Part shown: one piece after another, positions 9,185-25,525 of the stretch
Numbering within the stretch: the first letter of the stretch is position 1
How the letters are laid out: the number at the start of each line of letters is the position of its first letter
The notes under the pieces: generated by a model
Told to the model about the DNA's origin: nothing
The model's input: the letters and a program-made list of their open reading frames with translations, nothing else
The model's database searches: none
Source of the DNA: Flavobacteriaceae bacterium
Lineage (GTDB): Bacteria; Bacteroidota; Bacteroidia; Flavobacteriales; Flavobacteriaceae
DNA length: 35,958 nt
Direction of reading: 5' to 3'
Assembly (NCBI GenBank): GCA_022424955.1
Contig: JAKMGK010000005.1
Location: 1-35,958, forward strand
Program-made: the position numbers and the translations under genes

Positions 9185-9258
9185 ATGCAATGATACAAAA
9201 AAAATGAACTTTTAATTCAGGCCATTATCTGGATTAATCTTTACCTTGAAGCGTGAAA

Positions 9259-9702
9259 ATGCAATGTGATATAAAAAAAATTTCAGCAGAAAAAACACAC
9301 GCCATAAGGCATCCAATGCTTAGACAAGGTCGCCCGATTGAAGACTGTGTTTTTGATGGAGATAAAGATCCCCAAACGATCCACTTGGGTGCCTTCATCG
9401 AAAACAAACTTGTTGGAATACTCTCTGCCTATCAAAAAAACACTTCTGCTTTTAATGTAAAAGAAAGCTATCAAATAAGAGGTGTTGCGGTTCTTACAAC
9501 AGCTCATCGAAAAGGGATAGGTCGAGCATTAATGGCGCATATAGAGCAGATTTTACAACAAAGAAAAATTGATTTAATTTGGCTCAATGCAAGAATAACA
9601 GCAGTCGATTTTTATACTGCCCTAGCGTACCAACAAAAAGGAAACGCATTCGAAATAGAAGGCATAGGAACACATTACTGTTTTTATAAAATATTAAAAT
9701 GA
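9259..9702 (+). CDS. GNAT family N-acetyltransferase
   Basis: A 147-residue GNAT protein. Motif A is RGVAVLTTAHRKGIGRALM, with the HRKGIGR acetyl-CoA loop, and motif B contains LIWLNARITAVDFYTALAY. The N-terminal part includes IRHPMLRQGRP, a pattern seen in a small GNAT subfamily. The ATG at 9259 is preferred to the in-frame GTG two codons upstream. The stop codon overlaps the start of the M15 peptidase in an ATGA junction (9699-9702), so the two are translationally coupled. Substrate unknown. Confidence 0.88.
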   Translation: MQCDIKKISAEKTHAIRHPMLRQGRPIEDCVFDGDKDPQTIHLGAFIENKLVGILSAYQKNTSAFNVKESYQIRGVAVLTTAHRKGIGRALMAHIEQILQQRKIDLIWLNARITAVDFYTALAYQQKGNAFEIEGIGTHYCFYKILK

Positions 9703-10415
9703 AAAAAAACTTTGCGTTTTATCTTGGTTTATTGGTAGTGCAAAAATTGATAGGTCAAGTCACACTCACTGTTGATTCAGACTTACTCTTGGGGAAAAAA
9801 GAAATCACTACCACCACAAAAGAGTTTACCTTACTTCCACAAGCTGCACTTGCATTCAAAGAAATGCAAACTGCAGCAAAAAAAGATAGCATAGATCTAA
9901 AAGTTGTCTCTAGTTTTAGAAGTTATGCTGCGCAAAAGAGCATATGGAATAGAAAGTTCGAGCGTTTTACAAGAGGAGGTTTAACTGGCCCAGTGGCGAT
10001 TAAAAAAATTATTGAATATTCCACCCTACCGGGTACATCACGTCATCATTGGGGAACAGAGGTTGATCTAATTGATGGAAACAAAAAAGTAGAAGGAGAT
10101 GTCTTACTGGAAGAACATTTTCATCAAGGACTATATCAAAAACTTCATCGATGGTTACAAAAAAATGCTAATCGGTATGGCTTTGAGATAGTATATACTA
10201 AAGACAGTTTACGCAAGGGGTTTTTTTATGAACCCTGGCACTACAGTTATGCGCCACTTTCAAAAGAATTCTTAAAAGGATATCGAGAGAAAGAATTGAT
10301 TTATCGCATAAAACTAGACAGCACCTTACTTGGAAAAGAATTTATTTCACCAGAATTTATCGAGTCCTATTACCGTGAAAATATACTGGGAATCAATCCG
10401 CTATTAAAACAATAG
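9699..10415 (+). CDS. M15 family D-alanyl-D-alanine carboxypeptidase-like (VanY type)
   Basis: A 238-residue exported peptidase acting on peptidoglycan stem peptides. The N-terminal hydrophobic stretch (residues 5-19, ending LIGQ) is a signal peptide. The zinc site follows the family pattern SxHxxGxxxD as S114-R-H116-HWG-TEV-D123, with the second motif E178-P-W-H181. H116, D123 and H181 would bind zinc and E178 act as base. VSSFRSYAAQ at about 70-79 is the conserved substrate-binding segment. It starts in an ATGA overlap with the GNAT gene. Whether it cleaves D,D- or L,D-bonds cannot be decided from sequence. Confidence 0.9.
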   Translation: MKKNFAFYLGLLVVQKLIGQVTLTVDSDLLLGKKEITTTTKEFTLLPQAALAFKEMQTAAKKDSIDLKVVSSFRSYAAQKSIWNRKFERFTRGGLTGPVAIKKIIEYSTLPGTSRHHWGTEVDLIDGNKKVEGDVLLEEHFHQGLYQKLHRWLQKNANRYGFEIVYTKDSLRKGFFYEPWHYSYAPLSKEFLKGYREKELIYRIKLDSTLLGKEFISPEFIESYYRENILGINPLLKQ

Positions 10416-10496: not shown

Positions 10497-10832
10497 ATGA
10501 AAAAGACATATTACAATCCTGAGGATTTAAAAAAATTTAGCGCTATCACAGAATGGAATGAAGCGCTAGGCGAAAAATTTTTTGAGTATTATGCTAGCGT
10601 ATTCAAAGAAGGACATTTAACTGCTAGAGAAAAATCTTTAATTGCCTTAGCAGTCTCCCATGTAGTTCACTGCCCATATTGTATTGATGCTTACACTAAA
10701 GACGGTTTAGAAAAAGGCATTGAAAAAGAAGAAATGATGGAAGCGGTCCATGTGGGAGCTGCCATAAAAAGTGGTGCGGTTCTTGTGCATGGAGTTCAAA
10801 TGATGAATCGTCACGATCAATTGAGCATGTAA
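10497..10832 (+). CDS. Arsenosugar-associated AhpD/carboxymuconolactone decarboxylase-like protein
   Basis: A 111-residue helical protein of the carboxymuconolactone decarboxylase/AhpD superfamily and first gene of the arsenosugar operon. It keeps the redox motif C59-P-Y-C62 after the helix AREKSLIALAVSHVVH. The histidine that normally follows CxxC in AhpD is Tyr66 here. The ArsS gene starts three bases after its stop. Members found next to ArsS are named arsenosugar biosynthesis-associated peroxidase-like proteins. A thiol-redox role, such as keeping arsenic trivalent or detoxifying peroxide, is my inference and not shown. The upstream gap holds a weak -7-like TATACTTG at 10458-10465. Confidence 0.82.
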   Translation: MKKTYYNPEDLKKFSAITEWNEALGEKFFEYYASVFKEGHLTAREKSLIALAVSHVVHCPYCIDAYTKDGLEKGIEKEEMMEAVHVGAAIKSGAVLVHGVQMMNRHDQLSM

Positions 10833-10835
10833 TCT

Positions 10836-11894
10836 ATGGCTACCAAATCTCTTAAAGCACGTCAAAACGCCTTGTCGAATACTCAGCGGCAATTAGATAT
10901 ATTATCTAGTGGCTTATTTCAAGATGGAACTCTTCCCACTTTTGAAGAAAAAATAAAAGCACATCAACTTGACGCAATTCTACCTAAAACCTTGCAGATA
11001 TTACAAATCAATCTAGGGTATATGTGCAATCAAGTCTGCGCCCATTGCCATGTTGATGCTGGTCCAGACCGAAAAGAAATGATGCTAGACCAAACCCTGG
11101 AAGACTGCCTTAGTGTAATGCGAAACAATTCCATTGAAACAGTGGATCTTACAGGAGGTGCTCCAGAAATGCATCCGAAATTTAGATGGTTTGTTGAACA
11201 AATTCGTGCTCAAACAACCGTAAAAGAAATCATTGTACGGTCAAACCTTACCATTATCATGGCCAATAAAAAATACCATGATTTACCAATATTTTTTGCT
11301 AAGCACAAGGTTCATGTTGTTTCCTCACTACCCTTTTACAAACGTAATAAAACAGACAGACAACGGGGTTCAGGAGTGTTTGATCAATCGATTAAAGCCC
11401 TACTGAAATTAAATGAAGTGGGGTATGGAAAAGTGCATTCTTCTTTAGAATTAGACCTTGTTTACAACCCGGCTGGCGCTTTTTTACCAGGAGATCAGCA
11501 ATCCCTAGAAAACGATTTTAAAATAGCACTTAAAGAAGATTTTGACATCGACTTTAATCAATTATTCACCATTACAAATTTACCCATTAGTAGGTTTTTA
11601 GATTACCTCATCGTATCAGAGAACTATGAAGAATACATGCATACGCTAGTAGACGCCTTTAATCCATTAGCTGCAGAAAATGTCATGTGTACTAACACCC
11701 TTTCTGTTAGTTGGGAAGGTTATTTGTATGACTGCGACTTTAATCAAATGCTTGAATTAAAGGTGGACAGTGATCATCAACACATTCGTGACTTCAATCT
11801 CAATGCACTTGAAAAAAGAAAAATCCATCTTTCTCAACATTGCTATGGCTGTACTGCAGGAGCAGGAAGTAGCTGTCAAGGAAGCATCGCATAA
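10836..11894 (+). CDS. arsS: Arsenosugar biosynthesis radical SAM protein ArsS
   Basis: A 352-residue radical SAM enzyme. The cluster motif is C64-NQV-C68-AH-C71 (CxxxCxxC), followed by HVDAGPDRKEMM and the SAM-contact region TVDLTGGAPEMHPKFRW. The C-terminus has the ArsS signature C336-YG-C339-TAGAGSS-C347-QGS. In many relatives the last cysteine is selenocysteine; here it is an ordinary TGT. ArsS is assigned to 5'-deoxyadenosylation of dimethylated arsenic, the carbon-arsenic step of arsenosugar synthesis, in the cytoplasm. Three bases separate it from the AhpD-like gene and five from the following transferase. Identity is strong because signature and neighbourhood agree. Confidence 0.95.
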   Translation: MATKSLKARQNALSNTQRQLDILSSGLFQDGTLPTFEEKIKAHQLDAILPKTLQILQINLGYMCNQVCAHCHVDAGPDRKEMMLDQTLEDCLSVMRNNSIETVDLTGGAPEMHPKFRWFVEQIRAQTTVKEIIVRSNLTIIMANKKYHDLPIFFAKHKVHVVSSLPFYKRNKTDRQRGSGVFDQSIKALLKLNEVGYGKVHSSLELDLVYNPAGAFLPGDQQSLENDFKIALKEDFDIDFNQLFTITNLPISRFLDYLIVSENYEEYMHTLVDAFNPLAAENVMCTNTLSVSWEGYLYDCDFNQMLELKVDSDHQHIRDFNLNALEKRKIHLSQHCYGCTAGAGSSCQGSIA

Positions 11895-11899
11895 TCTCC

Positions 11900-12505
11900 A
11901 TGATGGGAAATAAATCATTACTCCTTGTTTTTGCTAAAAACCCCACATTAGGGAAGGTAAAAACACGCTTAGCAAAGTCAATTGGAAAAGAAAAAGCCCT
12001 TGAGATTTATAAGGTACTTTTGAAAAAAACAGCTAGCGTACTTAAAACGCTAGAAGTAGATATTCATTTATATTATTCTAACTATATCGAAAAAGACGAC
12101 TTCTTTTCAACAGTTGCGACACAAAAGAAAACACAAATTGGAAAACAACTGGGCGAACGCATGTCTAATGCCTTCCGTGAAAGCCTTATCTCTTATGACA
12201 AAGTAGTCATTATTGGTACAGATTTATGGACCCTCGAAATCCAAGACATTAAAAACGCCTTTAAGGCATTAGAAAATCATGCTGCGGTTATAGGTCCCTC
12301 TGCAGATGGAGGCTATTATCTTCTGGGGTTGACAGAAGTTATGCCACAAATTTTCCTAAATAAACAATGGGGTACCTCTAGCGTTTTACCCAATACACTA
12401 AGTGATTTAAAGTCTGTAAAGCTCCATTTACTCCCAGAGAAAAACGATATTGATACTTTTTCAGACCTTGAAGAACACCCCACCCTAAAAGCATGCATAC
12501 AATGA
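11900..12505 (+). CDS. TIGR04282-type arsenosugar biosynthesis glycosyltransferase (DUF2064)
   Basis: A 201-residue GT-A-like transferase of the rSAM/selenodomain-associated transferase 1 group. The N-terminal motif LLVFAKNPTLGKVKTRLAK is the nucleotide-binding start of the family. VVIIGTDLW is the metal-binding strand, IGPSADGGYYLLGL the family's middle motif, and NDIDTFSDLE its C-terminal signature. Family members sit beside ArsS and are thought to handle a sugar or sugar phosphate in arsenosugar assembly; the reaction is not established. Its TGA stop overlaps the phosphorylase start in an ATGA junction (12502-12505). Confidence 0.9.
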   Translation: MMGNKSLLLVFAKNPTLGKVKTRLAKSIGKEKALEIYKVLLKKTASVLKTLEVDIHLYYSNYIEKDDFFSTVATQKKTQIGKQLGERMSNAFRESLISYDKVVIIGTDLWTLEIQDIKNAFKALENHAAVIGPSADGGYYLLGLTEVMPQIFLNKQWGTSSVLPNTLSDLKSVKLHLLPEKNDIDTFSDLEEHPTLKACIQ

Positions 12506-13314
12506 TCGAACAAATCAATGAAAGTTTGGCTTTTTTAAAAGCCAAAGGAATTAAAGACAATGCCTCAGGAATTATTTTAGGCACTGGATTAGGCGACCTA
12601 GTAGAACACCTCTCCATTGAACTAGAAATTCCTTATGAAGACATCCCTCATTTTCCAAAATCCACTATGGAATTCCATAAAGCTCGCTTGTTATATGGCA
12701 CAATTGAAGGCAAAAAAGTTCTTGTTTTTGAGGGTCGCTTTCACGCCTATGAAGGCTTTAGCTATTTTGAAATCACCTACTCCATTCGATTAATGCATGC
12801 CCTTGCAGTAAAACAACTTATTATTAGTAATGCTGCAGGTGCCATTAACCTGGATTTCAAAAAAGGGGAAGTGATGTTAATTGAAGATCACATCAACTTG
12901 CAAGGAGGCTCCCCTTTAGCAGAAAAAGGAATCGATCAACTAGGGGAACGCTTTGTAGATATGAGTGCACCCTATTCGAAAAATCTAATTGAACGTAGCA
13001 AAAATATTGCACAGGAAAATCAAATTTCATTGCATACAGGAGTCTATGCTTCTGTTATGGGACCCCAACTTGAAACTAGAGCAGAATATCGCTACTTAAA
13101 AATCATAGGGGCAGATGCAGTAGGCATGTCCACCGTTCCAGAAGTCATCGTGGCAAATCAACTACAAATAGAATGTATCGCCTTTTCTGTTTTAACAGAC
13201 GAATGTGACCCAGATAATCTCAAACCCATCGATATCCCAGATATTATGGCTGCAGCCAAAAAAGCGGAACAATATTTGATTATATTGGTCAAACAACTAA
13301 TTTCAACCCTCTAA
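12502..13314 (+). CDS. Purine-nucleoside phosphorylase (PNP/MTAP trimeric family)
   Basis: A 270-residue class I purine nucleoside phosphorylase. It shows the phosphate-binding ILGTGLGDL near the N-terminus, the catalytic region around GRFHAYEG, ISNAAGAINLDFKKGE, MGPQLETRAEYRYL and AVGMSTVPEVIVA. A possible start at 12493 exists, but the ATG at 12502 makes a perfect ATGA overlap with the preceding gene. In this operon a likely job is to remove the adenine from the deoxyadenosyl-arsenic product of ArsS, giving a ribose 1-phosphate with arsenic at C5. That is inference from context; a general purine salvage role is also possible. Confidence 0.93.
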   Translation: MIEQINESLAFLKAKGIKDNASGIILGTGLGDLVEHLSIELEIPYEDIPHFPKSTMEFHKARLLYGTIEGKKVLVFEGRFHAYEGFSYFEITYSIRLMHALAVKQLIISNAAGAINLDFKKGEVMLIEDHINLQGGSPLAEKGIDQLGERFVDMSAPYSKNLIERSKNIAQENQISLHTGVYASVMGPQLETRAEYRYLKIIGADAVGMSTVPEVIVANQLQIECIAFSVLTDECDPDNLKPIDIPDIMAAAKKAEQYLIILVKQLISTL

Positions 13315-13324
13315 TCTAATTTCA

Positions 13325-14293
13325 ATGAGTTATCTCGACGTAACAAAAGATGTATATAAAGAAGCGGCCTTAACCCCAGACGTAGGTTTGTGTTGTACCA
13401 CAACCCCTATATGGCAATTCCCTGGACTATCCATTCCCACCATTATGCAAGAAATGAATTATGGTTGTGGATCAACCGTTCACCCGAGGGATTTAGTCAA
13501 TAATCCAAAAATCCTCTATGTAGGTGTTGGCGGTGGGATGGAGCTTCTTCAATTCGCATACTTTTCAAGACAAAAAGAAGGTGTTATTGGAATCGATGTA
13601 GTAGATGAAATGTTAGACGCTTCGCGGAAGAATTTTGTTTTGGCCGAAGCACAAAACGACTGGTTTCAATCTGATTTTGTTACCCTTAAAAAGGGAGATG
13701 CTCTTCAACTACCCGTCGAAGACGAATCCATTGATGTCGCTGCACAAAACTGCCTTTTCAATATCTTTAAGGTAGAAGAACTAAAAAAAGCACTCGAAGA
13801 AATGTACCGGGTTTTAAAACCCCACGGAAGACTCGTTATGAGTGATCCCATTTGTGAACAACCCATGAATCAAACCCTGAGAGACGACGAACGTCTTCGC
13901 GCTTTATGTCTTTCTGGATCTATTACTTTAAAAGACTATATCAAAATGCTAACCGATGTTGGTTTTGGAACCATTGAAATTAGAGCAAAACGTCCCTATC
14001 GCATCCTTGACAAAAAGCACTACCCCACAGAAGAAACCATCTTTATCGAAAGTGTAGAAGTATGTGCCATTAAAGACCCTATGCCTGAAGATGGCCCTTG
14101 TGTCTTTACAGGGAAAGCAGCGATTTATTTTGGAGACGAAGACTTTTTTGACGATAAAAAAGGCCATGTCCTTTTACAAAATCAGCCTTTAGCGGTATGC
14201 GATAAAACTGCTGGAGCACTAGCAAAAATTAATCGAAATGACCTCTACATCAGTGAATCTACTTTCCATTATGATGGGGGCGGTTGTTGCTAA
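13325..14293 (+). CDS. arsM: Arsenite methyltransferase ArsM (arsenosugar type)
   Basis: A 322-residue SAM-dependent methyltransferase. SAM motif I is YVGVGGGMELLQFA at 65-78, with the acidic GID ending at D91. Cysteines C48 (NYGCGS), C143 (QNCLFN) and C195 (LCLSGS) sit where arsenite-binding cysteines occur in ArsM enzymes. The N-terminal CC (23-24) and the C-terminal DGGGCC are further thiols typical of the arsenosugar-operon form. It would methylate arsenite stepwise to dimethylated arsenic, the substrate for ArsS. It lies ten bases after the phosphorylase and 11 bases before the DUF547 start. The assignment of each cysteine to an alignment column is by eye. Confidence 0.92.
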   Translation: MSYLDVTKDVYKEAALTPDVGLCCTTTPIWQFPGLSIPTIMQEMNYGCGSTVHPRDLVNNPKILYVGVGGGMELLQFAYFSRQKEGVIGIDVVDEMLDASRKNFVLAEAQNDWFQSDFVTLKKGDALQLPVEDESIDVAAQNCLFNIFKVEELKKALEEMYRVLKPHGRLVMSDPICEQPMNQTLRDDERLRALCLSGSITLKDYIKMLTDVGFGTIEIRAKRPYRILDKKHYPTEETIFIESVEVCAIKDPMPEDGPCVFTGKAAIYFGDEDFFDDKKGHVLLQNQPLAVCDKTAGALAKINRNDLYISESTFHYDGGGCC

Positions 14294-14304
14294 ATTATAC
14301 TAAT

Positions 14305-15003
14305 ATGCGCCAAATCTTAACTTCCTTATTTCTCTTGCTATCATTTGTCTTGCTAGGGCAAAAAAACATTCATGAACAATGGACTTCTACCCTTAAAATC
14401 TATCTCGATAGTGAAGGTAATGTAAACTATGTCAAATGGAAAAACGACACGACCGCACTAGATAATTACATTAGTAGTCTCGAAGATAATCCTCCAGCAG
14501 AATATTGGTCAAAAAACGATTCATTGGCCTATTTTATCAATGCATATAACGCAGTAACGGTAAAACTAATCTTAGACAATTATCCCTTAAAAAGCATTAG
14601 AAAGCTTATCACACCATGGCGCTTTAAACGCTTTAATCTCAATGGAAAAAAAGTTTCGCTCAACCACATTGAACATGATGTTTTAAGAAAAATGGGAGAG
14701 CCAAGGATTCATTTTGCCATTAATTGCGCCTCTACCTCTTGTCCTAAATTACTCAACAAAGCTTTCTATTCCCACACCATGGAAAAACAGCTCGAAGCTG
14801 TAACAAAAGATTTTATCAACGATAAAAAAAGAAATCTCATAGGAGAAAAAGAAATGAGTGTCTCGCGCATATTTCAATGGTTTGCAGGAGATTTTGGAAC
14901 AAAGAAAGAGCGACATGCTTTTATACGCCGCTATGCTCAAGAGCCCGTTGATAAAAATGCAAAACTGCGCTTTTTAAATTATGACTGGAGTCTCAACGAA
15001 TAA
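14305..15003 (+). CDS. DUF547 domain protein, exported
   Basis: A 232-residue protein with a signal peptide (RQILTSLFLLLSFVLLGQ), so it is predicted outside the cytoplasm. DUF547 hallmarks are YFINAYNAVTVKLIL at about 81-95 and FAINCASTSCPKL with two cysteines. The ATG at 14305 is chosen because it begins the signal peptide; an in-frame TTG at 14284 overlaps arsM. The function of DUF547 is unknown. It recurs near arsenosugar genes in Bacteroidota, which suggests a role in a late or exported step, but no activity can be assigned. The last 23 bases overlap the following transferase gene. Confidence 0.85.
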   Translation: MRQILTSLFLLLSFVLLGQKNIHEQWTSTLKIYLDSEGNVNYVKWKNDTTALDNYISSLEDNPPAEYWSKNDSLAYFINAYNAVTVKLILDNYPLKSIRKLITPWRFKRFNLNGKKVSLNHIEHDVLRKMGEPRIHFAINCASTSCPKLLNKAFYSHTMEKQLEAVTKDFINDKKRNLIGEKEMSVSRIFQWFAGDFGTKKERHAFIRRYAQEPVDKNAKLRFLNYDWSLNE

Positions 15004-15691
15004 AGAAGGGATCTCTATCATTATCCCAATTTATAACGAGGCCCAACGATTACCAGCGTTTATCACTCTACTTTTCGATACTTTAGAAAGCAATCATTAC
15101 CAAATCATTTTTGTCGATGGAGGCAGTAAAGATGATAGCTGCAAAATTATTGAAGCTAATCCAAATTGCTCTTTAATTCATTCACAAAAAGGCAGAGCCA
15201 TACAAATGAATAAGGGCGCAAAAAAAGCACACTATCCCTTATTGTACTTTATTCATGTGGACTCCATTCCTCCTAAAGGATTTGATCAAATTTTACTTCA
15301 TCAATTTAAGCAAGGTCGAAAAGCGGGATGCTTTCAAATGCAATTCGATCACGATCATGTAGCATTAAATTGGGCTGCTTTTGCTACCAAATATAATACT
15401 AGGTTTTGTCGCAGTGGAGATCAATCGCTTTTTATTGAAAAAAACCTTTTTGAACATCTCAAAGGATTTGATGAACGTTATCATGTTTGTGAAGATGTTG
15501 AATTTATCGATCGCTTATATCAACTCAATCAGTTTACAGTACTAGAGCAAAAGATTACCACTTCTGCAAGAAGGTTTAAAGAAAATGGTATTTGGCGTTT
15601 GCACTTTCATCATGGGTTGATTCATTTAATGCGCTATTTTGGTATTGGCCCAAAGAGACTTTATCAATACTATTCGCGTTTTGTGAAATAA
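14981..15691 (+). CDS. TIGR04283-type arsenosugar biosynthesis glycosyltransferase (GT2)
   Basis: A 236-residue GT-A family 2 transferase, the rSAM/selenodomain-associated transferase 2 type. Motifs in order: SIIIPIYNEAQRLP, FVDGGSKDDS (nucleotide binding), KGRAIQMNKG, FIHVDSIPP (DxD-like metal site), then SGDQSLFI, GFDERYHVCEDVEFIDRL (catalytic acid region) and TSARRFKENG. It is the last gene of the arsenosugar operon and its ATG lies inside the end of DUF547. Expected to add a sugar or polyol unit to the arsenoriboside; the donor is unknown. Its 3' end overlaps the convergent GH113 gene by 22 bases. Confidence 0.92.
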   Translation: MTGVSTNKEGISIIIPIYNEAQRLPAFITLLFDTLESNHYQIIFVDGGSKDDSCKIIEANPNCSLIHSQKGRAIQMNKGAKKAHYPLLYFIHVDSIPPKGFDQILLHQFKQGRKAGCFQMQFDHDHVALNWAAFATKYNTRFCRSGDQSLFIEKNLFEHLKGFDERYHVCEDVEFIDRLYQLNQFTVLEQKITTSARRFKENGIWRLHFHHGLIHLMRYFGIGPKRLYQYYSRFVK

Positions 15692-16671
15692 GTGCGAAGT
15701 ACTTCTTCGGCTAATTTATTTTGTGGCGTAAATCCCATATGATTTTCTCCTCCAGCTGTTGCATGATTTGGAAACCATTTCCAAACAAATCCGCCCTTCC
15801 ACCAAGGTTGAGGCATAAACTCAAGTAGTAGAGCCTCAAGGGCCATCGCCTGCATTTTTGGATTATATTTTTGTGCTTTATCGCTATAATCCCATGGGCG
15901 ACTCAAGGGGTCGTCAATACTGCGGTATCCCATTTCTGTAAAAATAACTGGGCGATTTAATTTTTTAGTCATTTGAGCAATTCCTTTTTTTGTTTGTGTC
16001 CATCTTGTTCGGATATCCTCAAGGGTAACAGGCCTTTTCCCATTTAAGGGGAAATAAGCATTAATACCAATATAATCTAGGGCATCCCAAAATGGTACCA
16101 TTTGATATTGATCCCAATTTTCTGCATAAACTAACTTCCCTTTGTAAACAGTTCTTATCTCAAGAATTAATTCTCGCCAAAACTTTTCCTCTTGCTTAAT
16201 CATAGAGGGTAACTCTGTCCCTATACAAAACAAGGGGAGGTTATGTTGCGCAGCAACACCCGCAAAATGCAGAATAAATTTGCGATAAGAAGTCTTGAAT
16301 GCTTTCCGGGCCTGTTGTGTTTTTGGATTAATCTTCCCAGTATACACCCCTTTGCTAATCCAAATTTGCGGCTTAAGCATGACCTTAATCCCTTTGGCTT
16401 TAAAAAGCAGAATCGTTGCATGGAGTCCTTTTGTCTTTTCTCCCTCCCACTGCCAGGAAGTGTCATAACGCAACATACTATCTACAGCAGATTGCATGTA
16501 TCCAAAGGGCATCAATGTCACCCAATTTGCGCCAACTTCTTGTACAGGAATAATTTGTTCTGCTAGAACCTTTTCTTTTGTACCAACAAAACTTAACCCC
16601 ATGATCTTTTGGCCAAAGGCAAAAGAAGATAAAGCCATCAAAAAGAAGCCAAAAAGAAACTTAATTTTCAT
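15670..16671 (-). CDS. GH113-like glycoside hydrolase, exported
   Basis: A 333-residue TIM-barrel protein with a signal peptide (residues 1-20, ending FAFG/Q), so it works outside the cytoplasm. The likely acid/base is E153 in CIGTELPS and the nucleophile E246 in VIFTEMGYRS, the positions expected for clan GH-A. MPFGYMQ near 54 and FVWKWFPN near 295 fit GH113, whose characterised members are beta-mannanases. It is antiparallel to the arsenosugar operon, so it is not part of that transcript. The substrate is uncertain: mannan is a family-level guess. No sugar-uptake genes lie nearby. Confidence 0.82.
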   Translation of the reverse strand: MKIKFLFGFFLMALSSFAFGQKIMGLSFVGTKEKVLAEQIIPVQEVGANWVTLMPFGYMQSAVDSMLRYDTSWQWEGEKTKGLHATILLFKAKGIKVMLKPQIWISKGVYTGKINPKTQQARKAFKTSYRKFILHFAGVAAQHNLPLFCIGTELPSMIKQEEKFWRELILEIRTVYKGKLVYAENWDQYQMVPFWDALDYIGINAYFPLNGKRPVTLEDIRTRWTQTKKGIAQMTKKLNRPVIFTEMGYRSIDDPLSRPWDYSDKAQKYNPKMQAMALEALLLEFMPQPWWKGGFVWKWFPNHATAGGENHMGFTPQNKLAEEVLRTYFTKRE

Positions 16672-17491: not shown

Positions 17492-18781
17492 ATGACGTCC
17501 CAGTCTCCTATCATCATTATTGGCAACGGTATCGCAGGTACAACCCTGGCGAGAAATATTCGAAAAAATAGCAGACACCCCATTCTTGTTATTTCAAAAG
17601 AAAGTGACTATTTTTTTTCAAGAACTGCTTTGATGTATGTTTATATGGGACACCTTAAATGGGAAAATCTTGAACCCTATGAAAAAGGATTTTGGCAACA
17701 AAACAACATCGATCTTCTTAAGGCTGAAGTCACCCAAATTAAACCTCAAGAAAAAATCATTGTCCTAGCTAACGGTCAACACCTTTCATATAGTAGCCTT
17801 GTCTTAGCCACCGGGTCAACCCCCAATAAGTTCGGATGGAAAGGGCAAGATCTCGAGGGAGTACAAGGCCTCTACACTAAGCAAGATCTTGAAAAACTCA
17901 CTGCGAATGCCCCTAACATCAAACAAGCGGTAGTTGTAGGAGGAGGCCTAATAGGAATTGAACTCGCAGAGATGCTTCACAGTCGCGGAATTCGTGTGAC
18001 TTTTTTAGTCCGGGAAGATAGCTTTTGGAATAAAGTAATTTCCCCTCATGAAGGAGACATGATTGAAAAACATATCTTAGCCCATGGGATTGATTTAAAA
18101 ATGTCTACCAATCTAGTAGAAATTATAGCCAACGAAAAGGGGCAAGCCAATGCAGTAATTACCGATCAAGAAGAAAGTCTTCCTTGTCAAATGGTGGGGC
18201 TAACCGCCGGGGTGCGACCCAATATTGACTTTCTAAAAAATTCTGACCTAGAGATGAATCGAGGAATTTTAGTAGATCAACATCTAGCGACCAACCTACC
18301 CGATATATATGCCATAGGGGACTGTGCAGAATTGCGCGCTCCACTCCCTCATCGAAATGCGATTGAAGCGGTATGGTATGTAGGTAGGATGATGGGAGAA
18401 ACCCTTGCGCAAAGTTTAACAGGAAACCTTAGTCCCTATACTCCTGGTCACTGGTTTAACAGCGCCAAATTCTTTGATATTGAATATCAAACTTATGGAC
18501 AAATTTCTCCTCTTGCAACACAAAAAGAAAATCACTTTTGCTGGAAACACCCAGAAAAAAACTGCATGGTTAGACTTGCTTATCACCCTAAAAGCAGATT
18601 GTTTTTAGGGATCAACACCTTTGGTATTCGCATGCGACACGAAGTTTTTGATCAATGGTTAAATGACCAAACTTCCATAGAAACTGTCATGGAAAATTTA
18701 AGCCAAGTTAATTTCGATCCAGAATTTTACACCCAATACGAACCTCAAATAATCGCAGAATGGCAAAATCAATTCGTTTAA
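17492..18781 (+). CDS. NAD(P)/FAD-dependent oxidoreductase
   Basis: A 429-residue two-dinucleotide-binding-domain flavoprotein (Pyr_redox_2). FAD binding uses GNGIAG at 11-16 and AIGDCAEL near 274-281. NAD(P)H binding uses VVVGGGLIGIELAE at 147-160, with LATGSTP at 105-111. There is no redox-active CxxC, so it is not thioredoxin reductase. It resembles the N-terminal half of NirB, rubredoxin reductases and ferredoxin reductases. It overlaps by 22 bases the membrane ferredoxin downstream, so the pair probably passes electrons between NAD(P)H and the membrane. Possible links to arsenic chemistry are inference from the nearby arsenosugar operon only. Confidence 0.88.
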   Translation: MTSQSPIIIIGNGIAGTTLARNIRKNSRHPILVISKESDYFFSRTALMYVYMGHLKWENLEPYEKGFWQQNNIDLLKAEVTQIKPQEKIIVLANGQHLSYSSLVLATGSTPNKFGWKGQDLEGVQGLYTKQDLEKLTANAPNIKQAVVVGGGLIGIELAEMLHSRGIRVTFLVREDSFWNKVISPHEGDMIEKHILAHGIDLKMSTNLVEIIANEKGQANAVITDQEESLPCQMVGLTAGVRPNIDFLKNSDLEMNRGILVDQHLATNLPDIYAIGDCAELRAPLPHRNAIEAVWYVGRMMGETLAQSLTGNLSPYTPGHWFNSAKFFDIEYQTYGQISPLATQKENHFCWKHPEKNCMVRLAYHPKSRLFLGINTFGIRMRHEVFDQWLNDQTSIETVMENLSQVNFDPEFYTQYEPQIIAEWQNQFV

Positions 18782-20292
18782 ATATCGTTCAAGGGAAGAA
18801 CCTTGGCTTGCTGCTAGGGCTAGCAGGCTTATTGCTTCTACTTTATTCACTTTTTGATGAATCTTTTGCCCGCTCAACCAATGGGCTTATTAGCAGCTTA
18901 GTCTTGATTAGTGTAGGGACTATATTGTATAGCGAAAGACTGTATCACGGGACAATTCCTGGGATAAAAAACAATGGTGTCTGGTTAGATGGACTTTCTG
19001 CAAGAGGAGTTTTGGGATGGTTTGTGGGCATTGCATTAACCTGTTTTTATATCGCCCTTTATTTTTATCCAGAAACCCTGGGATTCAACAGCGAAGACAG
19101 TACTGGATTGGTTGCGTTTTTTGATCCTTTAAGCATTGCCTTAAATGGAAAGCCCGCCACACAATGGTTCGTTTATGGTTCGCTTTACACGCTTGCTATT
19201 TTAATTTTTGGCGTAAAATTTATTTTAAAATATCGCCATAATCGCTATCAAATTATCCGCACCCTTTCTGTCATGTTTTTTCAGTTAGGATTTGCATTTT
19301 TAATTCCAGAATTACTCGCATTTTTTCATCCAGATACCCCCTATTTTGCCAAAGATCTTAAAAATATGTGGCCGCTTAATTATTACTTTTTTGAATCATG
19401 GCACTTAAAAAATATGCTTAGTGGTGGGAACTTAGGATTATTTGTGCTCTTTTCTGGACTTGCTATGATTTTTATTGTCTCTCCCGTTTTAACTTATTTA
19501 TATGGAAAACGCTGGTATTGCTCTTGGGTGTGTGGTTGTGGTGCTTTAGCCGAGACAGCAGGAGATCCTTTTCGACAATTATCCAGTAAAAAAATAAGTG
19601 TGTGGAAATTAGAACGCTGGTTGATACATTTAGTATTGGTCTTTGTTTTTATAACCACCATTGCGGTAATCTGGTCATTTTTGGGAAGCAATCCATCATT
19701 GAGTAGTTTCTCCCGAGAAACCTTTGTTATTGGAATAGTTGTTTTCTTAGTTACAATCATGGGTGTCATCTATTTTTTTAAACGTAAAGAAATGGATAAA
19801 GATGCATTGTATAGCATGATTACCCTAGGGTGTATTATCGCTGGAACAATTGCGATCCAGGCCTTTTCTGGAGAAAAAAATATATTATTTATAAAAAGTT
19901 ACACCCTTACAAAATGGTATGGCTTTGGGATTGGAGCCGCTTTTTCTGGTGTTTTAGGCGTAGGGTTTTACCCCATTTTGGGGAGTCGTGTTTGGTGCCG
20001 CTTTGGTTGTCCCATGGCCGCTATTTTGGGATTACAGCAACGTTTACTTTCGCGTTTTCGCATTACTACTAATGGGGGACAATGTATCTCTTGCGGGAAT
20101 TGCTCTGCTTATTGCGAAATGGGAATTGATGTAAGGGCTTACGCCCAAAAGGGCCAAAACATAGTACGCTCTTCTTGTGTAGGCTGCGGAATTTGTTCTG
20201 CAGTCTGTCCGCGAGGAGTCCTCAAATTAGAAAATGGTCCTGTCGCTAATCGCACGAATCTTCCTAACTTTCCTTTAGGGAATAAGTTGTAA
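18760..20292 (+). CDS. NosR/NapH-like membrane protein with 4Fe-4S clusters
   Basis: A 510-residue polytopic inner-membrane protein. Hydrophobic segments lie near residues 15-31, 42-56, 85-103, 138-156, 170-188, 225-246, 288-307, 322-340, 352-368 and 388-406. Cysteine motifs are C254xxxC258xC260, then C413xxxC417P, then two ferredoxin clusters C442/445/448/452 and C473/476/479/483. Two CxxxC(P) sites followed by a 2x[4Fe-4S] tail is the NosR/NapH plan for moving electrons between quinol and a partner. The partner here is probably the FAD oxidoreductase overlapping its 5' end. No nitrate or nitrous oxide reductase is present in the window. Confidence 0.85.
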   Translation: MAKSIRLNIVQGKNLGLLLGLAGLLLLLYSLFDESFARSTNGLISSLVLISVGTILYSERLYHGTIPGIKNNGVWLDGLSARGVLGWFVGIALTCFYIALYFYPETLGFNSEDSTGLVAFFDPLSIALNGKPATQWFVYGSLYTLAILIFGVKFILKYRHNRYQIIRTLSVMFFQLGFAFLIPELLAFFHPDTPYFAKDLKNMWPLNYYFFESWHLKNMLSGGNLGLFVLFSGLAMIFIVSPVLTYLYGKRWYCSWVCGCGALAETAGDPFRQLSSKKISVWKLERWLIHLVLVFVFITTIAVIWSFLGSNPSLSSFSRETFVIGIVVFLVTIMGVIYFFKRKEMDKDALYSMITLGCIIAGTIAIQAFSGEKNILFIKSYTLTKWYGFGIGAAFSGVLGVGFYPILGSRVWCRFGCPMAAILGLQQRLLSRFRITTNGGQCISCGNCSAYCEMGIDVRAYAQKGQNIVRSSCVGCGICSAVCPRGVLKLENGPVANRTNLPNFPLGNKL

Positions 20293-24565: not shown

Positions 24566-25525
24566 TTATTTATCGTTATCTTCTATTTTAAGGGTGGTTT
24601 GTCGTTCTCTATTAATGCTTAGCTGGGTGACATCTGGGCGAGCATAATGCCCTACTGGATCAAAGTTTTGACGTTCTTCATACACCCTATCTAGTTCAAG
24701 CGTATGGCAAAAAACCCCCTCTTTTTCTATTATAGGTGGAACCAGCCATTCCCCATTAGGACCTGCGATAGCAGAGCCACCATTCGCTAAAATATCTGGT
24801 GCGTTTCCGAGTAGTTCTTCAATATAAGGGGTGTCTGCAGAAAAATCTGTTTTACGCATTAAACTAGAAACAGAAACCATAAAAGAACGTGATTCTCTTG
24901 CCACAAAACGGGTAATATCTTTGGTATTGTGATCGCCCCCTGGCCAAACGGCTACATGTAAATTTTCGCCTTGTGCATAAAGTGCAGCCCGTGGTAAAGG
25001 CATCCAATTTTCCCAGCAATTTAATCCCCCCAGCGTAAAGCCATTCAATTCGTGTACCTTTAATCCGTGACCATCTCCTGGAGCCCAGGTTAGACGTTCA
25101 TCATAGGTGGGTTGCAGTTTTCGATGGACCGAATTTATTAGGCCTTTTTCATTGATGTATACTAAGGAACAATATAAACTGTGTCCTCCACGATTTTTTG
25201 CACGTTCAATTAACCCTAAATAAACGGCTAACTTCAACTCTTTGGCTAGGGCACATATTTCTTCTAGATCACCTGCTTCGATTTGCACCGATTGTTTTGT
25301 GTAATGTGCATGTAAGCTTTTATTGACCGGTAATTCCCATTTAGCCCCCTGGGTTAAGGCTAGCCAAAACGGATAACCGGGTAAAAATCCTTCTCCAAAA
25401 ACAATTAGTTGAGCCTGTTGATTAGCCGCTTCTATCATCGCATCTTTTGCTTTTTTAAGCGTTGCTGATTTGTTTAACCAAATTGGTGCTAACTGCGCCA
25501 TGGCAACGGTAATACTTTGACTCAT
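24566..25525 (-). CDS. Nitrilase-superfamily carbon-nitrogen hydrolase
   Basis: A 319-residue hydrolase with the Glu-Lys-Cys triad: E45 (VFGEGFLPGYPFW), K136 (HRKLQPTYDERLTW) and C170 (GLNCWENWMP). The FLPGYPFW and HRKLxPTxxER patterns and the length are those of true nitrilases (branch 1) rather than amidases or omega-amidases, so a nitrile or cyanide-like substrate is possible. It starts nine bases after the prenyltransferase stop and ends one base before the pseudouridine synthase. Its presence in a mevalonate-isoprenoid operon is not explained by any known pathway and may be simple insertion into the operon. Confidence 0.87.
   Translation of the reverse strand: MSQSITVAMAQLAPIWLNKSATLKKAKDAMIEAANQQAQLIVFGEGFLPGYPFWLALTQGAKWELPVNKSLHAHYTKQSVQIEAGDLEEICALAKELKLAVYLGLIERAKNRGGHSLYCSLVYINEKGLINSVHRKLQPTYDERLTWAPGDGHGLKVHELNGFTLGGLNCWENWMPLPRAALYAQGENLHVAVWPGGDHNTKDITRFVARESRSFMVSVSSLMRKTDFSADTPYIEELLGNAPDILANGGSAIAGPNGEWLVPPIIEKEGVFCHTLELDRVYEERQNFDPVGHYARPDVTQLSINRERQTTLKIEDNDK

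What the first reader, a model, noticed from the sequence alone, without database searches (positions are those of the whole stretch)
10497..15691. Complete seven-gene arsenosugar biosynthesis operon
Seven tightly packed, co-oriented genes (gaps of a few bases or ATGA overlaps) encode an AhpD-like protein, radical SAM ArsS, a TIGR04282-type transferase, a purine nucleoside phosphorylase, ArsM, exported DUF547 and a TIGR04283-type GT2. The identities rest on visible motifs (ArsS CxxxCxxC plus C-terminal TAGAGSS-Cys; ArsM YGCG and further cysteines). ArsM and ArsS are the established core of arsenosugar synthesis. The order of the other steps is inference. A flavobacterial organism making organoarsenicals would matter for marine arsenic cycling.
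Basis: partly seen in the sequence, partly recalled or inferred. Interest (0 to 1): 0.82.

Follow-up and report, generated by a model that had tools for sequence, protein, structure and literature searches.

The report
Flavobacterial arsenosugar operon with phosphorylase step
A flavobacterium carries a seven-gene cluster that probably turns toxic arsenic into arsenic-bearing sugars, and comparing it with distant bacteria suggests how the middle steps of that poorly known pathway work.

Summary
Six pass curated NCBIfam cut-offs (AhpD-like TIGR04169, ArsS, TIGR04282, a purine nucleoside phosphorylase (PNP), arsenosugar-type ArsM, TIGR04283); DUF547 passes in Pfam. The system is not rare: ArsS is in 111 of 149 genomes of the same family, and NCBIfam already names these families. 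I add a mechanism for the middle steps. PNPs like this one are in 111 of 111 ArsS-positive and 13 of 38 ArsS-negative genomes of the family. Their pocket has the Asp tied to adenine cleavage and an aliphatic residue in place of a 5'-OH-facing His. Three proteobacterial plasmid lineages with ArsS, TIGR04282 and TIGR04283 carry a methylthioadenosine phosphorylase there. TIGR04282 folds most like nucleotidyltransferases. Proposed route: ArsM, ArsS, phosphorolysis to 5-dimethylarsinoyl-ribose-1-phosphate, nucleotide activation, glycosyl transfer. Against: the pocket is not unique to the cluster; 25 of 111 ArsS-positive genomes lack this ArsM; five genomes keep the back half without ArsS or ArsM; a fourth plasmid lineage has no phosphorylase nearby. 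No product was shown, and 'complete' is unproven.

The parts
10497..10832 (+). AhpD/CMD-fold peroxidase-like protein (arsenosugar-associated TIGR04169); probably thiol redox
   Evidence: TIGR04169 185.8 bits, cut-off 120; just before ArsS (<400 bp, same strand) in 78 of 80 named loci and 53 of 60 fetched phylum loci
10836..11894 (+). ArsS, radical SAM enzyme that adenosylates dimethylarsenic
   Evidence: TIGR04167 439.9 bits, cut-off 300; C64xxxC68xxC71 and C285, C300, C336, C339, C347 invariant in 13 sequences
11900..12505 (+). TIGR04282 protein; predicted sugar-1-phosphate nucleotidyltransferase (CofC/FbiD-like fold)
   Evidence: TIGR04282 197.1 bits; AlphaFold2 mean pLDDT 95.2; best PDB matches 3cgx Z 26.0, 7p97 Z 19.1; invariant K21, R23, D108, D136, D183, D185 in 43 sequences
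12502..13314 (+). Purine nucleoside phosphorylase, predicted 5'-arseno-adenosine phosphorylase; ATGA overlap with the gene before (longest ORF starts at 12493)
   Evidence: NF006054 317.2 bits, cut-off 218; below TIGR01700 (inosine/guanosine PNP I) cut-off, 266.4 against 293.35; L193, E194, D236, I248 (numbering from 12493)
13325..14293 (+). ArsM, arsenosugar-type arsenite S-adenosylmethionine methyltransferase
   Evidence: NF038099 578.8 bits, cut-off 400; C48, C143, C195 align with residues 72, 174 and 224 of the arsenic methyltransferase 4kw7
14305..15003 (+). DUF547 protein, exported by the look of its N-terminus, role unknown
   Evidence: PF04784 89.1 bits; hydrophobic N-terminal segment by eye, no signal-peptide program run; invariant H136, C141, C146 in 28 sequences; AlphaFold2 pLDDT 93.9; no PDB match with Z of 4 or more
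14981..15691 (+). TIGR04283 GT2-type glycosyltransferase, predicted arsenoribosyl transferase
   Evidence: TIGR04283 226.4 bits, cut-off 182
17492..18781 (+). FAD/NAD(P) pyridine-nucleotide-disulphide-type oxidoreductase; candidate extra partner
   Evidence: PF07992 187 bits; recurs in loci of this kind
18760..20292 (+). Membrane 4Fe-4S NapH-like ferredoxin-type protein; candidate extra partner, overlaps the gene before
   Evidence: TIGR02163 50 bits, under its cut-off of 213; recurs with the oxidoreductase

Best explanation
An arsenosugar biosynthesis operon. ArsM methylates arsenite twice to dimethylarsenic; ArsS uses S-adenosylmethionine and a radical to join it to the 5' carbon of adenosine. 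The operon PNP then splits this nucleoside with phosphate into adenine and 5-deoxy-5-dimethylarsinoyl(arsino)-ribose-1-phosphate. TIGR04282 activates that sugar phosphate with an NTP, and the GT2 enzyme TIGR04283 moves the arsenoribosyl group to an acceptor (glycerol or a lipid head group). The AhpD-like protein and perhaps the downstream flavin/Fe-S pair handle redox; DUF547 acts outside the cytoplasm. Shown here: gene identities, conservation, co-occurrence, pocket residues, fold. From the literature: ArsM and ArsS steps in homologues. Inferred: PNP, TIGR04282 and TIGR04283 steps and their order.
For: Curated profiles. ArsS and ArsM of Synechocystis catalyse the first steps (cited in PMC8552651, passage); a radical SAM enzyme adenosylates arsenic (PMC12159101, passage). 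All 111 ArsS-positive genomes of 149 in the family carry a PNP at 55% identity or more to the window's, against 13 of 38 ArsS-negative ones, Fisher p 3.3e-19 (genomes share ancestry, so p is too small). TIGR04282 and PNP are adjacent in 42 of 80 named loci. Of nine loci read where ArsS lies elsewhere in the genome, eight keep TIGR04282, PNP, ArsM and TIGR04283 together (L206-L212, L224) and one lacks a detected TIGR04283 (L229). All 77 complete PNPs from ArsS-positive loci or genomes have D236 and an aliphatic residue at 248. In human PNP, Asn at the matching place (243) sets 6-oxopurine specificity and Asn-to-Asp raises adenosine kcat 5000-fold (PMC6128611, passage). In Cupriavidus, Burkholderia glumae and Acinetobacter portensis a methylthioadenosine phosphorylase lies beside or two genes from TIGR04282/TIGR04283; in B. 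glumae it is on the same strand, 17 nt from TIGR04283. TIGR04282 fold: 3-phosphoglycerate guanylyltransferase 7p97 Z 19.1. [quoted passage not shown]
Against: D236 is in all 29 other Bacteroidota PNPs compared, and 10 of those 29 also have the aliphatic residue (6 of the 10 from ArsS-negative genomes), so the pocket fits any 5'-modified adenosine. Contact of His257 with the 5'-OH was not persistent in one simulation study (PMC4308819, passage), so its loss is a weak sign. The engineered human enzyme that cleaves adenosine prodrugs also had Glu201 changed (PMC2799393, passage); the window PNP keeps that Glu. 25 of 111 ArsS-positive genomes of the family lack this ArsM; in the phylum sample ArsM is in 20 and ArsS in 121 of 296. 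50 of 60 fetched phylum ArsS loci have no PNP nearby. Five genomes without ArsS or ArsM keep TIGR04282-PNP-TIGR04283. In Acinetobacter the phosphorylase is on the opposite strand. No phosphorylase was found in the stretches read of three of six plasmid lineages; one of these, Thiodictyon, has TIGR04282 and a TIGR04283-like gene just under cut-off (162.4 against 182).
Confidence: 0.6

Rival explanations
1. The PNP only salvages purines. ArsM and ArsS use up SAM, and the PNP recycles methylthioadenosine, adenosine or other by-products, serving as the cell's general phosphorylase; the arsenosugar route uses a hydrolase elsewhere.
For: It is the only member of the phosphorylase superfamily found in this 91%-complete genome, so it may have a housekeeping duty. 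Eight ArsS-negative genomes keep a lone PNP of this type with none of the cluster genes detected beside it.
Against: Tight junction with TIGR04282 (ATGA here; adjacent in 42 of 80 named loci); a different phosphorylase subfamily lies near the same two genes in three proteobacterial lineages. The 13 ArsS-negative PNPs nest among ArsS-positive ones (quick tree, 48 of 116 forks weak), which fits loss of ArsS. In three phylum-sample genomes (G084, G218, G289) a second, F..H-type PNP also exists.
Confidence: 0.25
2. The back half (TIGR04282-PNP-DUF547-TIGR04283) makes an arsenic-free 5-deoxy- or 5-thio-ribose conjugate from 5'-deoxyadenosine or methylthioadenosine; arsenic chemistry was added on or is one of several inputs.
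For: Five genomes without ArsS or ArsM keep TIGR04282-PNP-TIGR04283 tightly packed; in three of them DUF547 follows the PNP directly where ArsM would lie.
Against: Those five PNPs nest among ArsS-positive ones, so they may be recent remnants. The two NCBIfam families are named for arsenosugars, though that naming is itself inference.
Confidence: 0.12
3. TIGR04282 is a true glycosyltransferase, as NCBIfam names it, and not a nucleotidyltransferase.
For: NCBIfam name; GT-A enzymes such as mannosylglycerate synthase 2bo7 also match the fold (Z 12.5).
Against: The best functionally assigned matches are guanylyl-, cytidylyl- and uridylyltransferases; 7p97 stands at Z 19.1, well above the GT rows; CofC also scores by sequence, below the NCBIfam cut-off but above the Pfam one.
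Confidence: 0.15

Closest known systems
Arsenosugar pathway of Synechocystis sp. PCC 6803 (SsArsM, SsArsS)
   Same: ArsM and ArsS families; expected product type (oxo-arsenosugars). Known here from passages in PMC8552651 and PMC12159101
   Different: Synechocystis itself was not examined. The cyanobacterial plasmid read here (Pseudanabaena) has ArsM, ArsS and TVP38 proteins, but no PNP, TIGR04282 or TIGR04283 was annotated or found by tblastn in the 15-kb stretch
ArsS-TIGR04283-TIGR04282-MTAP clusters of Cupriavidus, Burkholderia and Acinetobacter plasmids
   Same: Same proposed chemistry: ArsS, a nucleoside phosphorylase, TIGR04282, TIGR04283
   Different: Phosphorylase is of the MTAP subfamily. 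Cupriavidus and Acinetobacter also have a flavoprotein gene, a phosphate-transporter gene and an ArsM-like methyltransferase that is under the cut-off of every ArsM model listed
Fluorometabolite pathway of Streptomyces cattleya (FlB)
   Same: A 5'-modified 5'-deoxyadenosine is cleaved by phosphorolysis (PMC8694150, passage); that it is made from SAM is recalled
   Different: Fluorine, not arsenic; later steps differ (recalled)
CofC/FbiD guanylyltransferases (F420 biosynthesis)
   Same: Fold and sequence signature shared with TIGR04282
   Different: Substrates are phospho-acids such as 3-phosphoglycerate (title of 7p97); TIGR03552 cut-off not met (36.8 against 105)

Membership tests
ArsS (TIGR04167) | Score over curated cut-off | tested here: met
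   439.9 bits against 300
ArsS (TIGR04167) | CxxxCxxC cluster motif and conserved C-terminal cysteines | tested here: met
   C64, C68, C71 and C285, C300, C336, C339, C347 invariant in 13 aligned sequences
ArsS (TIGR04167) | Adenosylation of dimethylarsenic | not testable with these tools
   Needs enzyme assay
Arsenosugar-type ArsM (NF038099) | Score over curated cut-off | tested here: met
   578.8 bits against 400
Arsenosugar-type ArsM (NF038099) | Three As(III)-binding cysteines | tested here: met
   C48, C143, C195 align with C72, C174, C224 of 4kw7; Cys72, Cys174 and Cys224 of CmArsM bind As(III) (PMC12608789, passage); that 4kw7 is CmArsM is recalled
TIGR04282 | Score over curated cut-off | tested here: met
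   197.1 against 134
TIGR04282 | Glycosyltransferase activity, as the family is named | tested here: inconclusive
   Fold nearer to nucleotidyltransferases; GT-A folds also listed
TIGR04283 | Score over curated cut-off | tested here: met
   226.4 against 182
Purine-nucleoside phosphorylase (NF006054) | Score over curated cut-off | tested here: met
   317.2 against 218
Inosine/guanosine PNP I (TIGR01700) | Score over curated cut-off | tested here: not met
   266.4 against 293.35
MTAP (TIGR01694) | Score over curated cut-off | tested here: not met
   78.3 against 274.85
AhpD-like TIGR04169 | Score over curated cut-off | tested here: met
   185.8 against 120
Arsenosugar biosynthesis system | Dimethylarsinoyl riboside product | not testable with these tools
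   Needs culture or heterologous expression with LC-ICP-MS

The most novel reading that the evidence does not exclude
Bacteria of two phyla have built the same middle of the arsenosugar pathway with different phosphorylases: 5'-arseno-adenosine is phosphorolysed to arsenoribose-1-phosphate (a clade of PNP in Flavobacteriaceae, MTAP in Proteobacteria), activated by TIGR04282 to a nucleotide-linked arsenosugar, a type of metabolite I did not meet in the papers searched, and transferred by TIGR04283.
Probability: 0.48. Interest if true: 0.8.

Novelty: new variant of a known kind. Interest (0 to 1): 0.52.

Why it matters
Arsenosugars are widespread arsenic compounds of marine food webs, yet as far as I recall the steps after ArsS rest on proposals. 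One review passage proposes an adenosyl nucleosidase and direct transfer for a phytyl arsenoriboside (PMC10456119). The comparison here suggests phosphorolysis plus nucleotide activation instead and names one gene for each step, which makes the question testable with a few purified enzymes. It also shows that the genes are common in the window's family, so these bacteria, not only algae and cyanobacteria, may be sources of arsenosugars.

Tried and rejected
Idea that Asp at the human Asn243 place marks arsenosugar PNPs: rejected, it is in all 29 other Bacteroidota PNPs compared. Idea that the aliphatic residue at the His257 place is unique to the cluster: rejected, 10 of the 29 others have it. 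Idea that this PNP type is confined to ArsS-positive genomes: rejected, 13 of 38 ArsS-negative genomes have it.

DUF547: structure predicted well but no PDB chain reached Z 4, so nothing can be said about its fold family; my guess of a cysteine-peptidase-like role was neither supported nor excluded. The phrogs, padloc and Rfam libraries were not used. A search for Acr3 in the genome gave only a weak match below cut-off; two ArsC matches passed the Pfam cut-off and were not followed.

Literature: ten searches of the held library, several listings capped. In the listings and the passages read I saw no paper that links a PNP, an MTAP or nucleotide activation to arsenosugars. Subscription papers are mostly missing (Xue 2019 is not held), so this is no proof of absence.

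Mapping of window residues 193, 194, 236, 248 to human 200, 201, 243, 257 rests on the recalled human sequence; no call aligned human PNP residue by residue.

Full report
WHAT IS THERE. The seven genes lie at 10497-15691 on the + strand with junctions of 3 to 11 nt or overlaps. The PNP start is best placed at 12502, giving an ATGA overlap with TIGR04282, and the DUF547 start at ATG 14305. ArsS has CxxxCxxC and the C-terminal cysteines, invariant in 13 sequences. ArsM residues C48, C143 and C195 align with residues 72, 174 and 224 of 4kw7, the numbers given for the arsenite-binding cysteines of CmArsM (PMC12608789, passage). The window lies in a 1.80-Mb draft genome of 91% completeness. I call its family Flavobacteriaceae by inference from the named ArsS relatives.

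HOW COMMON. ArsS over cut-off is in 121 of 296 genomes sampled over the phylum. In the window's family it is in 111 of 149 (window ArsS, E 1e-60 or better), and arsenosugar-type ArsM in 86 of 149. I compared the lists by eye: all 86 are ArsS-positive, so 25 of 111 lack this ArsM. In the phylum sample ArsM is in 20 of 296, all 20 ArsS-positive. The system is therefore ordinary within this family, and NCBIfam already names its parts.

SYNTENY. Many loci are truncated, so these are lower bounds. In 60 loci fetched by hand choice from the 121 phylum genomes, PNP is near ArsS in 10, TIGR04282 in 32, ArsM in 10 and all seven in 5. Of nine loci read where ArsS lies on another contig or far away, eight hold TIGR04282, PNP, ArsM and TIGR04283 (L206-L212, L224); in L229 no TIGR04283 was detected.

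THE PHOSPHORYLASE. All 111 ArsS-positive genomes of the family carry a PNP at 55% identity or more to the window's. Of 38 ArsS-negative ones 13 do, 9 have only a more distant PNP (47% or less) and 16 none at E 1e-40 (Fisher p 3.3e-19, not corrected for shared ancestry). On a quick tree of 119 PNPs, 29 PNPs that I picked away from ArsS form one side of a branch (SH-aLRT 99), and the 13 ArsS-negative ones are scattered among ArsS-positive ones, as expected if ArsS was lost (48 of 116 inner branches are weak). Pocket (six truncated sequences set aside): 77 of 77 complete PNPs from ArsS-positive loci or genomes and 13 of 13 ArsS-negative ones have Leu193, Glu194, Asp236 and an aliphatic residue at 248. 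Of the 29 others, all have the Asp; 19 have Phe193 and His248; 10 have Leu193 and an aliphatic 248. Of those 10, four come from genomes that have ArsS elsewhere (G055, G105, G187, G282) and six do not. By recalled numbering the residues are human 200, 201, 243 and 257. Asn243 is described as the main determinant for 6-oxopurines, and Asn-to-Asp gives adenosine activity (PMC6128611, passage); a human enzyme engineered for adenosine prodrugs carried Asn243Asp together with Glu201Gln (PMC2799393, passages), and the window keeps the Glu. His257 can hydrogen-bond the 5'-OH, though not persistently in one simulation study (PMC4308819, passages). So the pocket suggests cleavage of adenine nucleosides without a 5'-OH. 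It is a general 5'-modified-adenosine pocket, not an arsenic signature. The protein also falls below the cut-off of the inosine/guanosine PNP I model.

CROSS-PHYLUM CHECK. Plasmid records gave six organism groups with ArsS (51 records, 46 of them Burkholderia, counted here as one lineage). Three lineages have TIGR04282 and TIGR04283 by annotation or over cut-off near ArsS, and all three have a methylthioadenosine phosphorylase there: Burkholderia glumae (MTAP-TIGR04283-TIGR04282, same strand, gaps 17 and 8 nt, about 6 kb from ArsS on the other strand), Cupriavidus (TIGR04283-TIGR04282-MTAP in the same run as ArsS and an ArsM-like gene) and Acinetobacter portensis (MTAP convergent, two genes from TIGR04282). 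A fourth, Thiodictyon, has TIGR04282 over cut-off and a TIGR04283-like gene just under it (162.4 against 182) but no phosphorylase in the stretch read; nor have Hymenobacter and Pseudanabaena. Two phosphorylase subfamilies near the same two genes is, to me, the strongest pointer to a phosphorolysis step, but it rests on three lineages.

TIGR04282. The model (pLDDT 95.2) matches an uncharacterised family member 3cgx (Z 26.0) and then 3-phosphoglycerate guanylyltransferase 7p97 (Z 19.1, 185 residues, rmsd 2.6), with IspD, TarI and GlmU at about 12 to 14 and the glycosyltransferase mannosylglycerate synthase at 12.5. Phosphorolysis gives a sugar-1-phosphate, the kind of substrate such an enzyme could activate, so the two predictions support each other.

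MECHANISM. As(III) is methylated twice by ArsM; ArsS adds the adenosyl group; PNP releases adenine and arsenoribose-1-phosphate; TIGR04282 makes the NDP-sugar; TIGR04283 transfers it. The first two steps are reported for homologues (PMC8552651 and PMC12159101, passages). The last three are inference. [quoted passage not shown] An earlier proposal used a nucleosidase and direct transfer (PMC10456119, passage).

WHAT DOES NOT FIT. Five genomes without ArsS or ArsM keep TIGR04282-PNP-TIGR04283 (L193, L195, L200, L204, L205). DUF547 directly follows the PNP in three of them (L193, L195, L204); in the other two TIGR04283 follows it within about 135 nt. Eight more keep the PNP with no cluster gene detected beside it. 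In the phylum sample 101 of 121 ArsS-positive genomes lack the dedicated ArsM, and 50 of 60 fetched loci have no PNP beside ArsS. The operon may thus be one part-list among several, and the back half may have a second use.

BEYOND THE SEVEN GENES. Downstream of a convergent GH113-like gene lie a flavin oxidoreductase, a NapH-like Fe-S membrane protein and a GT2 gene. One or both of the first two are in 27 of the 200 other loci in the script, of which 29 were single-gene stretches and many more are cut short; of seven loci with PNP, TIGR04283 and at least 4.5 kb beyond it, four have one within 5 kb. Three distant Bacteroidota loci have both after ArsS (L067, L074, L078). They may supply electrons for arsenic reduction or for ArsS; this was not tested.

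VERDICT. Observation confirmed; interpretation right in kind but 'complete' unproven; novelty lies in the predicted middle steps and their cross-phylum support.

Noticed in passing
window 17492-20292: Flavin oxidoreductase and NapH-like 4Fe-4S membrane protein with overlapping ends; one or both recur in 27 other fetched loci of this kind.
   Followed up: partly
L193, L195, L200, L204, L205: Five ArsS-negative, ArsM-negative genomes of the family keep TIGR04282-PNP-TIGR04283 (with DUF547 in three): a possible arsenic-free use of the back half.
   Followed up: partly
L194, L196-L199, L201-L203: Eight ArsS-negative genomes keep a PNP of this type with no cluster gene detected beside it.
   Followed up: no
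window 12493-13314: The operon PNP is the only phosphorylase-superfamily (PF01048) gene found in this draft genome, so it may also serve purine or methylthioadenosine salvage.
   Followed up: no
L235 and L237: In Acinetobacter and Cupriavidus a phosphate-transporter gene sits in the arsenosugar cluster; it could supply phosphate for phosphorolysis or take up arsenate.
   Followed up: no
window 15670-16671: A GH113-like gene lies convergent to the last operon gene and overlaps its 3' end; a similar gene is in 23 other fetched loci, often in the same place.
   Followed up: no
window 9253-10415: A GNAT gene and a VanY-type carboxypeptidase gene lie just before the operon on the same strand; both are also next to it in the same-genus genome (L222), and the VanY gene in L230.
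   Followed up: no
window 24566-25525: A Nit6803-like nitrilase (168 bits, under the 502.6 cut-off) had no match in the other loci searched.
   Followed up: no
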